Shown: one piece after another, positions 9,487 to 47,532 of the stretch | How positions within the stretch are numbered: position 1 is the stretch's first letter | Layout of the letters: every line of letters starts with the position of its first letter | Position numbers and translations under genes: made by a program | The notes under the pieces: model-generated | The model's database searches: none | Told to the model about the DNA's origin: nothing | What the model saw: the letters and a program-made list of their open reading frames with translations, nothing else | From: Kutzneria chonburiensis | Lineage (GTDB): Bacteria; Actinomycetota; Actinomycetes; Mycobacteriales; Pseudonocardiaceae | Reading direction: 5' to 3' | Assembly: GCF_028622115.1 (NCBI RefSeq) | Contig: NZ_CP097263.1 | Span: 5,518,001-5,582,000, forward strand | DNA length: 64,000 bases

Positions 9487-10898
9487 CCCCCACCCCCGCG
9501 AGTCCCGCTCTCAGACACACCGAAATACGGTTTCAGGCAGAACTGCCTGAAACCGTATTTCGGTGTGCCGCTAAGCGGGACTCGCGGGGTTATCACGACG
9601 TCGAGGCCGGGGTTGGCGTCGTCGAGGCGGAGGGTGCCGCCGGCGGCGGCCACGAGGTCGGCGCAGATGGCCAGGCCGAGCCCGGTGCCGCTGACGTTCT
9701 GGTGCTGCGGGGAACGCCAGAACCGGTTCAGGGCCTGGATTCGGTCGTCCGCGCTCAGGCCGACGCCGTTGTCGGCGACGTGCAGCTCACCGTCCACGAA
9801 GAACACTCGAACGGTGGTGCCGCCGGACAGCCGGGCGGCGTTGGCCACGAGCTCGTCCAGCACGCTGCCGTAGGAGACCGGAACCCGTTGCCCCGCAGGC
9901 ACATCGGTCTCCACGGCCAGGCCGAGGTGCTGCCACTTGGGCAGGTGCACGGACACCAGCAGCGCGAGGTCGACGGTCTCGGCGGCGGCGTCCAGCCGGG
10001 TCGCGGCCAGCAGCGCGTCGAGCACGTTGCCCATCTCCTGGGCCTCCTCGACGGCGATCTGGTGCGCCTCACGGGCGAACTCCTCGCCGGGCAGGTGCGG
10101 CTCCAGGTTGTCGACGGCCAATCGCAGGCTGGCCAACGGATTGCGCAGCTGGTGGGAGGCGTCGGCGACGAAGTCGCGCTGCCGGCGCATGGCCGTGTTG
10201 ACCACGTCCACCATGGTGTTGAAGGAATTGCTGAGCCGCCGCAGCTCGGGCGGCCCGCTCACGTCGTCCACATGGGTGTCGACGAGGCCGCCGGCGATGG
10301 CGGCGGTGGCCTCGTCCAGCCGCCGGATCGGCCGCAGGATCCAGCGCGACACCGGCCACGCCGCGGCGATCACGGCCAGCAGCGGCAGCACACCCAGCAG
10401 GGCCCGCCATCCCCACTGGGACAGGATGTCGGACCGCAGCCGGTCGGTCGGCGACACGGCCACCACCGCCGCCACGACCTCGCTGTCCCGGCCCACCGGC
10501 TCCACCACGACCAGCGGCGCCGGCTCCCACGGCATCACGGCGTCAGGCGGGCTGGGACGGTAGCCGGAGAAGGCGGCGGTCAGCCCGGCGGCCACGGCCG
10601 GGTCGGTGAGATCGGGCCGCTGCCGGGACGCGAACAGCACCTTGCCGCCGGGCTGCACCAACGCCACCGGAATGCCGTACAGCTGGTCGTAGCGGCTCAG
10701 CTCGTCCTGCAACGCCTCGGTCCGCCCCGAGGTCAGCGCCGTCTCGGCCAGCGTGGCGAACCGGCTCACGTCGGCCAGCCGGTCCAGGTACGTCGTCTGC
10801 GTCTCGCGCTCGGCCACGGCGTTGCCCAGCGGCAGGCCCAATGCCGCGCCCAGCAGCAACAGCAGCGGGATGAGCACCAACAGCAGCCGGCGCAGCAT
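9483..10898 (-). CDS. sensor histidine kinase (HAMP, HisKA, HATPase)
   Basis: A 471-residue membrane kinase. TM1 is LLLVLIPLLLLLGAALG near residue 10; an extracytoplasmic region of about 120 residues follows; TM2 is LLGVLPLLAVIAAAWPVS; then a HAMP segment, and the phosphoacceptor His in DFVADASHQLRNPLASL. The ATPase domain has the N-box LDELVANAARLS, G1 VADNGVGL and G2 GTGLGLAICADLV. Its ATG overlaps the TGA of the response regulator gene (TGATG at 10896-10900). The final ~30 residues are encoded by a large palindrome (9494-9589) and are unlike kinase C-termini, suggesting that the native stop has been replaced. Confidence 0.92.
   Translation of the reverse strand: MLRRLLLVLIPLLLLLGAALGLPLGNAVAERETQTTYLDRLADVSRFATLAETALTSGRTEALQDELSRYDQLYGIPVALVQPGGKVLFASRQRPDLTDPAVAAGLTAAFSGYRPSPPDAVMPWEPAPLVVVEPVGRDSEVVAAVVAVSPTDRLRSDILSQWGWRALLGVLPLLAVIAAAWPVSRWILRPIRRLDEATAAIAGGLVDTHVDDVSGPPELRRLSNSFNTMVDVVNTAMRRQRDFVADASHQLRNPLASLRLAVDNLEPHLPGEEFAREAHQIAVEEAQEMGNVLDALLAATRLDAAAETVDLALLVSVHLPKWQHLGLAVETDVPAGQRVPVSYGSVLDELVANAARLSGGTTVRVFFVDGELHVADNGVGLSADDRIQALNRFWRSPQHQNVSGTGLGLAICADLVAAAGGTLRLDDANPGLDVVITPRVPLSGTPKYGFRQFCLKPYFGVSESGTRGGGG
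9494..9589. repeat. 96-bp palindromic element between convergent genes
   Basis: Outer arms of 16 bp (9494-9509 and 9574-9589, core GCGAGTCCCGCT) and inner arms of 25 bp (9516-9540 and 9543-9567) separated by 2 nt pair perfectly; a 6x6 internal loop lies between them. It sits directly after the + strand gene ending at 9486 and inside the 3' end of the histidine kinase gene. It should work as a bidirectional terminator. The outer-arm sequence AGCGGGACTCGCG recurs at 29796-29808, so part of it is a dispersed repeat. Confidence 0.85.
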
Positions 10899-17733: not shown

Positions 17734-17779
17734 TTGACGCGCGGCGGATACGACCCTAGATTTCAATGGTTGTTGAAAT
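17734..17779 (+). promoter_or_regulatory. promoter with TetR-type palindrome between trpE and the leader-tetR unit
   Basis: On the + strand TTGACG (17734-17739) and TAGATT (17757-17762) form a sigma70-like promoter with a 17-bp spacer. The palindrome ATTTCAA-N6-TTGAAAT (17760-17779) overlaps the -10 and the predicted start site, a classic position for autorepression by the TetR encoded downstream. It also lies 39-58 bp upstream of trpE, so it could affect that gene. Confidence 0.65.
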
Positions 17780-17790
17780 TAGGAGTGCAC

Positions 17791-17871
17791 GTGACCGAGC
17801 TTGCGAGGGAACCATTCAACACAGGGACCTGGGTCGCAGACCCGCCGAGCGCCAGCGAGGTGGGCCTGTGA
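17791..17871 (+). CDS. 26-codon conserved leader ORF upstream of tetR (copy 1)
   Basis: GTG at 17791 follows AGGAG with 6-nt spacing and opens a 26-residue ORF starting VTELAREPF and containing [10 protein letters not shown], ending SEVGL before a TGA at 17869-17871. The TGA overlaps the GTG of the TetR gene by 4 bases (GTGA), and the peptide's final codons contain the GAGGTGGG that acts as the tetR ribosome-binding site. An 81-bp sequence differing at only five positions lies upstream of bioA (47390-47470) in the same arrangement. I do not recognise the peptide. It may be a translational-coupling leader or a mobile regulatory module. Confidence 0.65.
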   Translation: MTELAREPFNTGTWVADPPSASEVGL

Positions 17872-18458
17872 CCGATCCGAAGCGGCGGGGTCGCCGGCCT
17901 GCCGGCGACGACACCAAGGCCGCCCTGCTCGCGGCCGCCCGGGAAGTCTTCACCGAGCAGGGGTTCGACGGTGCCACGGTACGCGCCATCGCGGCGCGGG
18001 CCGAGGTCGACGCGGCGATGGTCAACCACTGGTTCGGCGGCAAGCAGGGCCTGTTCGCCGCCGCCGTGCAGCTGCCCGTGACTCCTGAGTTCGTCCGTGA
18101 CGTCGTGTTCGCCTCCGGCCCGGTCGAGGAGCTCGGCGCCCGGGTCGTGCGCCAGTTCCTCACCGTCTGGGACGGCAGCGGCGGCGGCGCCTTCACCACC
18201 CTGGTCCGCAGCGCCGCCACCCAGGAGTCCGCGGCGGCGATGCTGCGTGAGTTCATCACCTCGGTGTTCGGCACCCTGCTCAAGGAACTCGGCGTCGACC
18301 AGCCCGAACTGCGCCTCGGCCTGTTCGGCTCCCAGCTGGCCGGCCTCGGCCTGGCCCGGTACGTCATGCGGCTGGAGCCCATCGCCTCGGCCGACATCGA
18401 CACCCTCGTCGCCAGCGTCGGCCCCACCCTCCAGCGCTACCTCACCGGCAAGGTGTGA
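17868..18458 (+). CDS. TetR/AcrR-family transcriptional regulator
   Basis: A 196-residue regulator. The N-terminal HTH is clear: LLAAAREVFTEQGFDGATVRAIAARAEVDAAMVNHWFGGKQGLF at about residues 25-68. The C-terminal ligand domain is of the TetR_C type (ELGARVVRQFLTVWD, ARYVMRLEPIASADIDTLV). The GTG at 17868 overlaps the leader ORF stop. It probably binds the palindrome at 17760-17779 and represses its own operon, and perhaps divergent trpE. The ligand is unknown. Confidence 0.9.
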   Translation: MTDPKRRGRRPAGDDTKAALLAAAREVFTEQGFDGATVRAIAARAEVDAAMVNHWFGGKQGLFAAAVQLPVTPEFVRDVVFASGPVEELGARVVRQFLTVWDGSGGGAFTTLVRSAATQESAAAMLREFITSVFGTLLKELGVDQPELRLGLFGSQLAGLGLARYVMRLEPIASADIDTLVASVGPTLQRYLTGKV

Positions 18459-18463
18459 CCGAC

Positions 18464-18583
18464 GTCAGGAAGGGCCCCTTACTGACGTTGAACGCCAGTA
18501 TCGGTCCCTTGATCTTGCCGGCGGTGTCAGGAAGGGGTCCTTCCTGACGTTCAACGTGAGGATCGGTCCCTTGATCTTGCCGG
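18464..18583. repeat. two tandem 62-bp repeats with terminator-like hairpins
   Basis: Unit 1 begins at 18464 and unit 2 at 18526. Both start with an inverted repeat (GTCAGGAAGG...CTGAC; the second is a perfect GTCAGGAAGG-ggt-CCTTCCTGAC) and share GATCGGTCCCTTGATCTTGC-like 3' halves. They fill the gap between convergent tetR and hisI. Tandem duplicated bidirectional terminators are the simplest reading. Confidence 0.75.
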
Positions 18584-46127: not shown

Positions 46128-47393
46128 TCAGCCGACCGTCGCGGCCGCAACTATCGCGGTGCAGACCTGAGCCAGGTCGTCGTCCCCGATCACGTACGGC
46201 GGCATGGTGTAGATGAGGTCGTTGAACGGCCGCAGCCACACTCCGTGATCGACGGCGGCCCGCTGGGCGGCGGCCATGTCGACGGGATGGTCCAGCTGGA
46301 CGGCCCCGATCGCGCCCAGGACCCGCACGTCGGCGACGCCGGGGATGTCACGCGCTGCGTCCAGGGCGTGCAGACCGGTCTCGATACGTTTGATCTCGGC
46401 CCGCCAGTCCTGGCCCAGCAGCAGGTCGATGGACGCGTTGGCGACCGCCGAGGACAGCGGGTTGCCCATGTACGTCGGCCCGTGGGCCAGCACCGGCACC
46501 TCGCCCCGGGAGATGCCGTCGGCCACCCGTGACGTGCACAGCGCGGCCGACATCGTCACATATCCGCCGGTCATGGCCTTGCCGACGCACATGACGTCCG
46601 GGCTGATGCCGGCGTGGTCGGCGGCGAACAGCTCGCCGGTGCGGCCGAAGCCGGTGGCGATCTCGTCGAACACCAGCAGCACGTCGTTGGCCAGGCTGAC
46701 CTCGCGCAGGACGTGCAGGTAGCGGGGGTCGTGGAAGCGCATGCCGCCGGCGTTCTGCACCACCGGCTCGACCACGATCGCCGCCAGCTCGTCGGCGTGC
46801 TGCTCGACCAGGTCCACCAGGTGCTGCACGTAGTCGTGCTCGAACTCGGCCGGCGGGGCGTCGGCGAAGACCTGCTCCGGCAGCACGCCGGCCCACAACG
46901 AGTGCATGCCGCCCTCGGGGTCGCAGACGCTCATCGGGTGGAACGTGTCGCCGTGATAGCCGCGCCGCCACGTGAGCAGCCGTCGCTTGGCCGGCCGGCC
47001 GAGTGACCGCCAGTACTGGAGGCACATCTTGATCGCGACCTCCACCGACACCGAGCCGGAGTCAGCCAGGAACACGTGTTGCAGCGGCTCCGGCGTGATG
47101 TCGACGAGCTTCTTGGCCAGCTGGACCGCCGGCTCATGGGTCAGGCCGCCGAACATCACGTGGCTCATCCGGCCGAGCTGCTCCCGGACGGCGTCGTCCA
47201 GCACCGGGTGCCGGTAGCCGTGGATGGCCGACCACCAGGAGGCCATGCCGTCGACCAGCTCCCGCCCGTCGGCCAGCCGCAGGCGGACGCCTTCGGCGTC
47301 GGTCACGACCAGCGGGTCGATCCGGCCGGGCATGGGCGCGTACGGATGCCACACGTGGGCGCGGTCAAGGGCGAGCAGCTCGTCGGGCGTCAC
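46128..47393 (-). CDS. bioA: adenosylmethionine-8-amino-7-oxononanoate aminotransferase
   Basis: A 421-residue PLP aminotransferase making DAPA from KAPA. It has [65 protein letters not shown] and the PLP lysine in [13 protein letters not shown]. The GTG at 47393 overlaps the stop of the conserved 26-codon leader ORF, which also supplies the GAGGTGGG ribosome-binding site. Confidence 0.96.
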
Positions 47394-47470
47394 AGGCCCA
47401 CCTCGCTGACGCTCGGCGGGTCTGCGACCCAGGTCCCAGTGCTGAATGGCTCCCTCGCAAACTCGGTCAC
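47390..47470 (-). CDS. 26-codon conserved leader ORF upstream of bioA (copy 2)
   Basis: GTG at 47470 opens a 26-residue ORF starting VTEFAREPF, containing [10 protein letters not shown] and ending SEVGL, with TGA at 47390-47392 overlapping the bioA GTG (GTGA). It differs from copy 1 (17791-17871) at five nucleotides, giving three amino-acid changes (L/F, N/S, A/V). The minus-strand TAGGGT at 47477-47482 is a plausible -10, placing transcription start at the GTG itself, so this copy may be leaderless. Confidence 0.65.
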
Positions 47471-47532
47471 GGTGTGACCCTAACCCGCTGCGGCTCAGCG
47501 GTTTCTCAGTGCTCGGTCCCTAAATTGGCCGC

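What the first reader, a model, noticed from the sequence alone, without database searches (positions are those of the whole stretch)
17791..17871. Conserved 26-codon leader ORF overlapping a TetR gene, repeated upstream of bioA
Two 81-bp ORFs, 30 kb apart and on opposite strands, are identical at 76 of 81 positions and each ends in TGA overlapping the GTG of the next gene by four bases. The same few codons provide the downstream ribosome-binding site (GAGGTGGG). The downstream genes (tetR here, bioA at 47393) are unrelated, so the conserved part is the leader itself. Shared core residues are [10 protein letters not shown]. This looks like a mobile or recurrent translational-coupling leader. 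I do not recognise it from known families.
Basis: partly seen in the sequence, partly recalled or inferred. Interest (0 to 1): 0.8.

Follow-up and report, generated by a model that had tools for sequence, protein, structure and literature searches.

The report
Mobile 77-bp start-codon leader repeat
The repeated leader is one copy of a small mobile DNA element, 77 bases long, that has inserted itself at the start codons of many unrelated genes in Kutzneria and related actinobacteria, adding a short open reading frame in front of each gene; it resembles in design, though not clearly in sequence, the MIRU repeats used to type tuberculosis strains.

Summary
The two 81-bp ORFs are copies of a dispersed repeat: a 77-bp unit plus the NTGA start codon it abuts. 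The window genome (genus inferred as Kutzneria) carries 14 full units at 11 sites, some in tandem with a 77-bp step. Across it and five congeners, 27 distinct sites have a sequence-checked empty counterpart; 26 lie at a gene start, both window sites included. So it is mobile. Units are co-oriented with the gene and often sit where one gene's TGA overlaps the next start. The reading frame is kept open (0 of 160 full-length units with an internal stop; 32 after column shuffling) but the peptide is not conserved; both ends and a covarying hairpin are. Best reading: a non-autonomous mobile element that lands on start codons and keeps the gene translated by coupling to its own short ORF. It has the design of mycobacterial MIRUs (length, start-codon insertion, -4 overlap, tandem variation, even the same senX3-regX3 junction) without a significant sequence or model match. 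Translation and coupling are inferred; the mobiliser is unknown; two of the seven window-genome sites with the closest copies are not at starts, so targeting versus selection is open.

The parts
17791..17871 (+). Element copy 1: 77-bp unit 17791-17867 plus the NTGA (GTGA, 17868-17871) that is the tetR start; its 26-codon [29 protein letters not shown]
   Evidence: site empty in four congeners (L155, L157, L165, L166), filled in G002 (L068)
17793..17835 (+). Left hairpin (weak support)
17836..17869 (+). Right hairpin with tip GA-GC-GNNA-GC-GA; its 3' arm holds the ribosome-binding site
17857..17864 (+). GAGGTGGG, presumed ribosome-binding site for the downstream gene
   Evidence: GCGAGGTGG or GCGAGGAGG in 32 of 44 aligned copies
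17760..17790 (+). Native tetR leader: palindrome ATTTCAATGG/TTGTTGAAAT (17760-17779), presumed ribosome-binding site AGGAG (17782-17786), now in front of the element's ORF
   Evidence: kept in empty sites of close congeners
17868..18458 (+). TetR-type regulator gene, start overlapped by the element
47390..47470 (-). Element copy 2: 77-bp unit 47394-47470 plus GTGA 47390-47393 (bioA start); [29 protein letters not shown]
   Evidence: site empty in all five congeners searched (L416-L420)
47477..47483 (-). TTAGGGT, -10-like box 6 nt before the element's GTG, suggesting a leaderless start; found 7-8 nt before the bioA GTG in four congeners, TAGCCT 7 nt before it in the fifth
46128..47393 (-). bioA, start overlapped by the element

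Best explanation
The leader is a non-autonomous mobile element of 77 bp that begins with GTGA, folds as two hairpins and carries an ORF open to its 3' end. It is inserted, in the sense orientation, directly at the NTGA of a gene's start codon, often where that NTGA is also the stop of the gene before. After insertion the old start region (Shine-Dalgarno or leaderless promoter) starts the element's ORF. That ORF ends in a TGA overlapping the gene's own NTG by 4 nt, behind a GAGGNGG ribosome-binding site, so the gene goes on being translated by termination-reinitiation. Shown: dispersal, exact insertion and empty sites, start-codon placement, tandem growth in 77-bp steps, open frame without peptide conservation, covarying right hairpin. 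Inferred: translation of the ORF, coupling, selection for it, and that a trans-acting enzyme moves it.
For: Copies: 14 units at 11 sites in the window genome; a match in 13 of 60 genomes, 73 of 298 of the order and 8 of 394 of the class (four of the eight outside the order), the window's own genome counted in each. Insertion: 40 arrays at 27 distinct sites have a sequence-checked empty counterpart in another Kutzneria genome (L144 dropped because it matched its own locus); the DivIVA / 3-methyladenine-glycosylase site (named from the translations) holds two units in G000 and is empty in five congeners with flanks up to 95% identical. Placement: of 91 arrays 49 lie on a stop+start overlap against 6 of 948 NTGA sites in the window, and only 4 on a stop alone against 22 in the control (Fisher p = 1e-10); in a second set of 97 arrays 56 stop+start, 26 start only, 5 stop only. 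Frame: 170 of 188 distinct units (picked by their ends and a terminal NTGA) are open and in frame with the terminal TGA; interior stops in 3 of 188 against 49 and 51 in the other sense frames; among 160 full-length units 0 against 32.2 +- 3.7 after column shuffling. Structure: 29 cells with both-side changes in the right hairpin against 9.9 +- 2.7 shuffled and at most 17 when slid.
Against: No ribosome or protein evidence. Some copies are not at starts: inside a uracil-DNA-glycosylase-like gene, breaking its frame (L014), and in a promoter region (L010). These are 2 of the 7 window-genome sites whose copies are at least 94% identical to the query, a larger share than in the whole set, where 7 of 91 and 6 of 97 arrays fell in the class 'neither' (one of the 7, L078, is a start by inspection). 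The Y1 transposase family was found in 1 of 7 genus genomes, as a 58-aa frame, and not in the window genome; other transposase families were not searched. No long copy carrying a mobiliser was seen in 80 of 118 loci. Structure is not uniformly supported: six of seven single units fold no better than shuffles (z -0.15 to -1.35; the seventh -3.00), the number of pairs with both-side change (5) is as in shuffles (4.4), and RNAalifold predicts other, invariant pairs. In the column shuffle frame 1 is also depressed (43 against 74.5; frame 2 48 against 46.6), so linkage explains part of the frame-0 result. Computed folding does not show the element's ribosome-binding site to be more hidden than native ones (mean unpaired 0.48, n = 84, against 0.34, n = 44). 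Copies are related, so shuffle controls overstate significance. An empty site could in single cases be a loss.
Confidence: 0.85

Rival explanations
1. Each copy is a functional regulatory leader (attenuator or riboswitch-like) acquired because it controls its gene; spread reflects useful regulation, not a selfish element.
For: Right hairpin covaries; frame kept open; PMC2734929 (abstract and passages) reports that longer tandem repeats upstream of M. tuberculosis fpg1 went with higher expression.
Against: Host genes share no function (tetR, bioA, protocatechuate dioxygenase, ribosomal, flagellar, murF, regX3, kdpE; named from the translations); at 27 sites at least one congener lacks it; no Rfam match in the window; one copy breaks a gene.
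Confidence: 0.12
2. Insertion is close to random at NTGA-like sites and the start-codon pattern is what selection keeps. (A rival about targeting only; compatible with the best explanation otherwise.)
For: Mid-gene and promoter copies exist, and they are 2 of the 7 window-genome sites with the closest copies, as expected if young insertions are less sorted.
Against: Stop-only NTGA sites should be as harmless, yet hold 4 of 91 and 5 of 97 arrays against 49 and 56 on stop+start; three of those five are followed by a further unit.
Confidence: 0.4
3. A conserved small protein spread by gene duplication.
For: Close copies share [10 protein letters not shown].
Against: Flat codon-position entropy; the centre of the peptide is unrelated in Geodermatophilaceae-type and G005 copies.
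Confidence: 0.03
4. True descendants or relatives of the mycobacterial MIRU rather than an independent family.
For: Same design; same senX3-regX3 junction used; similar hairpin tip GAGCG..AGCGA followed by GAGG and NTGA. R1 with filters off places a full-length match on the MIRU unit of L249, both ends on NTGA (6.1 bits, E 5.9), and one overlapping the MIRU of L253 (5.1 bits, E 9.2). In one pair the tip aligns in register with 14 of 1000 shuffles as good.
Against: Those R1 scores are at chance level and below 50 other matches in the same list (best E 0.13, elsewhere); pairwise scores are reached by 0 to 601 of 1000 shuffles depending on the pair, and the best-scoring pair is out of register.
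Confidence: 0.3

Closest known systems
MIRU (mycobacterial interspersed repetitive units; Supply et al. 1997, not read, seen through passages of PMC12548453, PMC4213456 and PMC2734929)
   Same: Short (40-100 bp; three 77-bp units between senX3 and regX3 in H37Rv), dispersed, said to be mobile and to insert at start codons with an internal ORF coupled at -4 nt, variable tandem copies. Several of the 53-bp-type units read here in mycobacterial genomes also run from NTGA to NTGA.
   Different: No significant sequence or model match; 77 bp as the main unit, two predicted hairpins; hosts are Pseudonocardiaceae, Geodermatophilaceae, Nocardia and others; no genome of the presumed Mycobacterium genus (g37) is among the 73 matching genomes.
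REP/BIME elements moved by RAYT (Y1) transposases (recalled)
   Same: Short, non-autonomous, hairpin-forming, dispersed.
   Different: Coding-strand start-codon placement; no Y1 transposase found in the window genome.
Leader peptides of attenuation systems (recalled)
   Same: Short ORF before a gene.
   Different: Peptide not conserved; host genes unrelated; the leader moves between genes.

Membership tests
MIRU | 40-100 bp unit, dispersed | tested here: met
   77 bp in 160 of 188 distinct units; 11 sites in the window genome
MIRU | ORF overlapping the next gene's start by 4 nt, same orientation | tested here: met
   exceptions told
MIRU | insertion at start codons / NTGA of coupled genes (the 'DTGA' wording is recalled) | tested here: met
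   27 sites with an empty counterpart, 26 at a gene start by the rule
MIRU | tandem copy-number variation | tested here: met
   same site with 1, 4 and 2 units (L084, L102, L119) and with 1, 1, 5 and 1 (L077, L082, L106, L112)
MIRU | sequence similarity to mycobacterial MIRU | tested here: not met
   no significant match; chance-level matches at two MIRU places are told under rivals
MIRU | measured translational coupling | not testable with these tools
   needs reporters or ribosome profiling
REP/RAYT | Y1 transposase in the genome | tested here: not met
   0 in G000; a 58-aa frame in 1 of 7 genus genomes
MITE with terminal inverted repeats | terminal inverted repeats | tested here: not met
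   ends are GTGACCGAGC... and ...GGGCCTGTGA: a direct GTGA at both ends, no inverted repeat (sequence)
Attenuation leader peptide | conserved peptide | tested here: not met
Rfam RNA family | match at gathering score | tested here: not met
   0 matches in the window

The most novel reading that the evidence does not exclude
A start-codon-homing element: the mobility mechanism itself recognises translation start sites, Shine-Dalgarno-led and leaderless alike, for instance through an RNA intermediate or the initiating ribosome, and has arisen at least twice in actinobacteria (here and as MIRU).
Probability: 0.17. Interest if true: 0.88.

Novelty: new variant of a known kind. Interest (0 to 1): 0.62.

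Why it matters
MIRUs are widely used typing markers, yet none of the passages read here says what moves them. This second family has recent insertions and clean empty sites in congeners, so target choice and mobility can be studied in soil actinobacteria. It also affects annotation: start codons, leader ORFs and some N-termini in these genomes are element-derived, and in the window genome a tetR and a bioA gene now stand behind an acquired leader.

Tried and rejected
Central GGGTC-GCA-GACCC hairpin alone: covaries (27 cells against 10.6 +- 2.3 shuffled; 20 when slid by one) but competes with the two-hairpin fold; kept as an alternative. RNAalifold's own consensus pairs mostly invariant bases (0 of 7 pairs with both-side change). 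Left hairpin: weak, one covarying pair (14 cells against 7.9 shuffled, 12 when slid). Hidden ribosome-binding site: not supported. Y1/RAYT mobiliser: not supported. Autonomous long copy: 80 of 118 loci scanned; 103 complete, 6 lone 5' and 18 lone 3' ends; two lone 5' ends have a 3'-like motif 855 and 2697 bases on, the second inside a complete copy, the first (L333) with a long reverse-strand frame that I read as a sugar-kinase-like gene, not a transposase (no family search run). Which N of NTGA belongs to the element: examined, contradictory (L124 and L140 have A on the right with G in the empties; L107 has G on both sides with A in the empties), left open. Plasmid and phage carriage: no match. 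Print search for such repeats outside mycobacteria: the listings show none; subscription papers are not held. PMC12210973 (passages) uses MIRU only as a typing marker. The class 'start only' is not a clean measure (control 349 of 948, because in-frame internal NTGs count), so only stop+start against stop only is tested. On checking the calls I withdrew a claim that the closest copies share the start bias (2 of 7 do not) and for that moved the random-insertion rival from 0.35 to 0.40 and the novel case from 0.20 to 0.17; I also added the chance-level model matches at two MIRU places.

Full report
The observation. The two ORFs exist as described. The window lies in a 10.41-Mb single-contig genome. 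The core pattern occurs 8 times and the 81-bp query finds 42 places at E <= 10, of which 14 full units at 11 sites are counted here, among them a pair and a triple in tandem with a 77-bp step. Shorter hits include one unit cut short (L019) and four ORF starts carrying only the 5' end (L022, L024, L025, L026).

A dispersed family. 13 of 60 genomes match at E <= 1e-6, the window's own included (15 candidates per genome were scored, so copy numbers are lower bounds). A covariance model from 44 copies (A1; R1) matches 73 of 298 genomes of the order and 8 of 394 of the class (four of the eight outside the order). No match in plasmids or phages.

It moves. Flanks of 10 window-genome sites with the element removed were searched in five congeners, then those of 29 arrays of the other Kutzneria genomes. 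Each of the 10 sites has a contiguous counterpart in at least one congener. Among the loci then held, 40 arrays at 27 distinct sites have a sequence-checked empty counterpart in another genome. At 26 of them the empty site is a gene start with NTG, mostly NTGA; the exception is the glycosylase-like gene, whose site is not an NTGA. The bioA site of the window is empty in all five congeners and the tetR site in four, filled in the fifth. The DivIVA/glycosylase site is empty in five congeners with flanks up to 95% identical, so that insertion is recent.

Where it lands. Of 91 arrays (95 listed, four partial copies left out) 49 lie on an overlapping stop+start, 31 on a start, 4 on a stop alone and 7 on neither by a GC3-based rule; one of the 7 (L078) is a start by inspection. 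In the window 948 NTGA sites give 6 stop+start, 22 stop only, 349 start only (many of them in-frame codons inside genes) and 571 neither. A second set (101 of 118 named loci; Kutzneria and A. arida left out) gives 97 arrays: 56 stop+start, 26 start, 5 stop only (three followed by a further unit), 6 neither, 4 without a terminal NTGA; 4 more at locus edges were dropped. Stop+start against stop only differs from the control with p = 1e-10 and 5e-11. Starts include Shine-Dalgarno-led ones (tetR) and apparently leaderless ones with a TANNNT box 12-13 nt upstream (bioA, L012, L076, L111, L127). Hosts, named from the translations, include rpsI, murF, fliQ and ruvX, and regX3 and kdpE. The exceptions matter: one copy breaks a glycosylase-like gene and one lies in a divergent promoter region, and these are two of the seven window-genome sites with copies at least 94% identical to the query.

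What is conserved. Both ends, GTGASCGAGCTTGCGAG... and ...GAGCGYYAGCGAGGNGG....NTGA, and base pairing. The right hairpin has a tip GA-GC-GNNA-GC-GA and arms with 29 cells changed on both sides against 9.9 +- 2.7 shuffled, although the number of such pairs is not unusual and six of seven single units fold no better than shuffles. The frame is open: 170 of 188 distinct units run open and in frame to the terminal TGA; 3 of 188 have interior stops in frame 0 against 49 and 51 in the other two, and 0 of 160 full-length units against 32.2 +- 3.7 after column shuffling (frame 1 is also below its shuffle, 43 against 74.5). The peptide is not conserved: entropy by codon position is flat. Relatedness of copies weakens the controls.

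How it works. The old start region now starts the element's ORF; that ORF ends in TGA overlapping the gene's NTG behind GAGGNGG. Translation is therefore kept by coupling; this is inferred. A switch by hiding the ribosome-binding site is not supported: it is predicted no more paired than native sites.

What it resembles. PMC12548453 (passages) states that MIRUs appear mobile, insert at start codons and couple an internal ORF at -4 nt; PMC4213456 (passages) gives three 77-bp units between senX3 and regX3 in H37Rv; PMC2734929 (abstract and passages) gives 40-100 bp, 41 locations, and expression rising with repeat length at fpg1. Supply 1997 itself was not read. The same junction is filled by the present element in G001, G002 and G005 and empty in G000, G003 and G006. 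R1 gives only chance-level matches at two MIRU places (E 5.9 and 9.2) and pairwise scores are not decisive. So it works like a MIRU but is not shown to be one by descent.

Open. The mobiliser is unknown. Whether start codons are targeted or merely retained is open: the rarity of stop-only sites speaks for more than tolerance, the two off-start young copies speak for sorting by selection.

Noticed in passing
window 18464-18583 (+): Two 58-nt repeats (88% alike) with the palindrome GTCAGGAAGGNNYCCTTMCTGAC just after tetR. The pattern has 62 matches in the genome (32 forward, 30 reverse, 0 in control; perfect palindromes count on both strands); two inverted pairs stand exactly 1347 bp apart (4629004/4630351 and 6911873/6913220), as terminal repeats of an insertion sequence would, so the small copies may be its MITE.
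   Followed up: partly
L022, L024, L025, L026 (window genome): ORFs (CoA transferase subunit, miaA and others, named from the translations) whose N-terminus VSELASEP... is the 5' end of the element fused in frame (L026 is a short ORF): element-derived N-termini.
   Followed up: no
L014 (G000:C1:895925-896005): A copy inside a uracil-DNA-glycosylase-like gene breaks its frame in the window genome; the gene is uninterrupted there in G003.
   Followed up: partly
L113, L117: Arrays with a 78-bp step, in which the units read as one fused in-frame ORF instead of overlapping by 4 nt.
   Followed up: no
window 9494-9589: 47-nt inverted repeat, 89% complementary, with a 2-nt loop; possible terminator or small mobile repeat.
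   Followed up: no
G087 and G236 (taken for Mycobacterium, unnamed): 23 and 28 matches to a query with a 53-bp MIRU-type unit, many in tandem: large MIRU sets.
   Followed up: no
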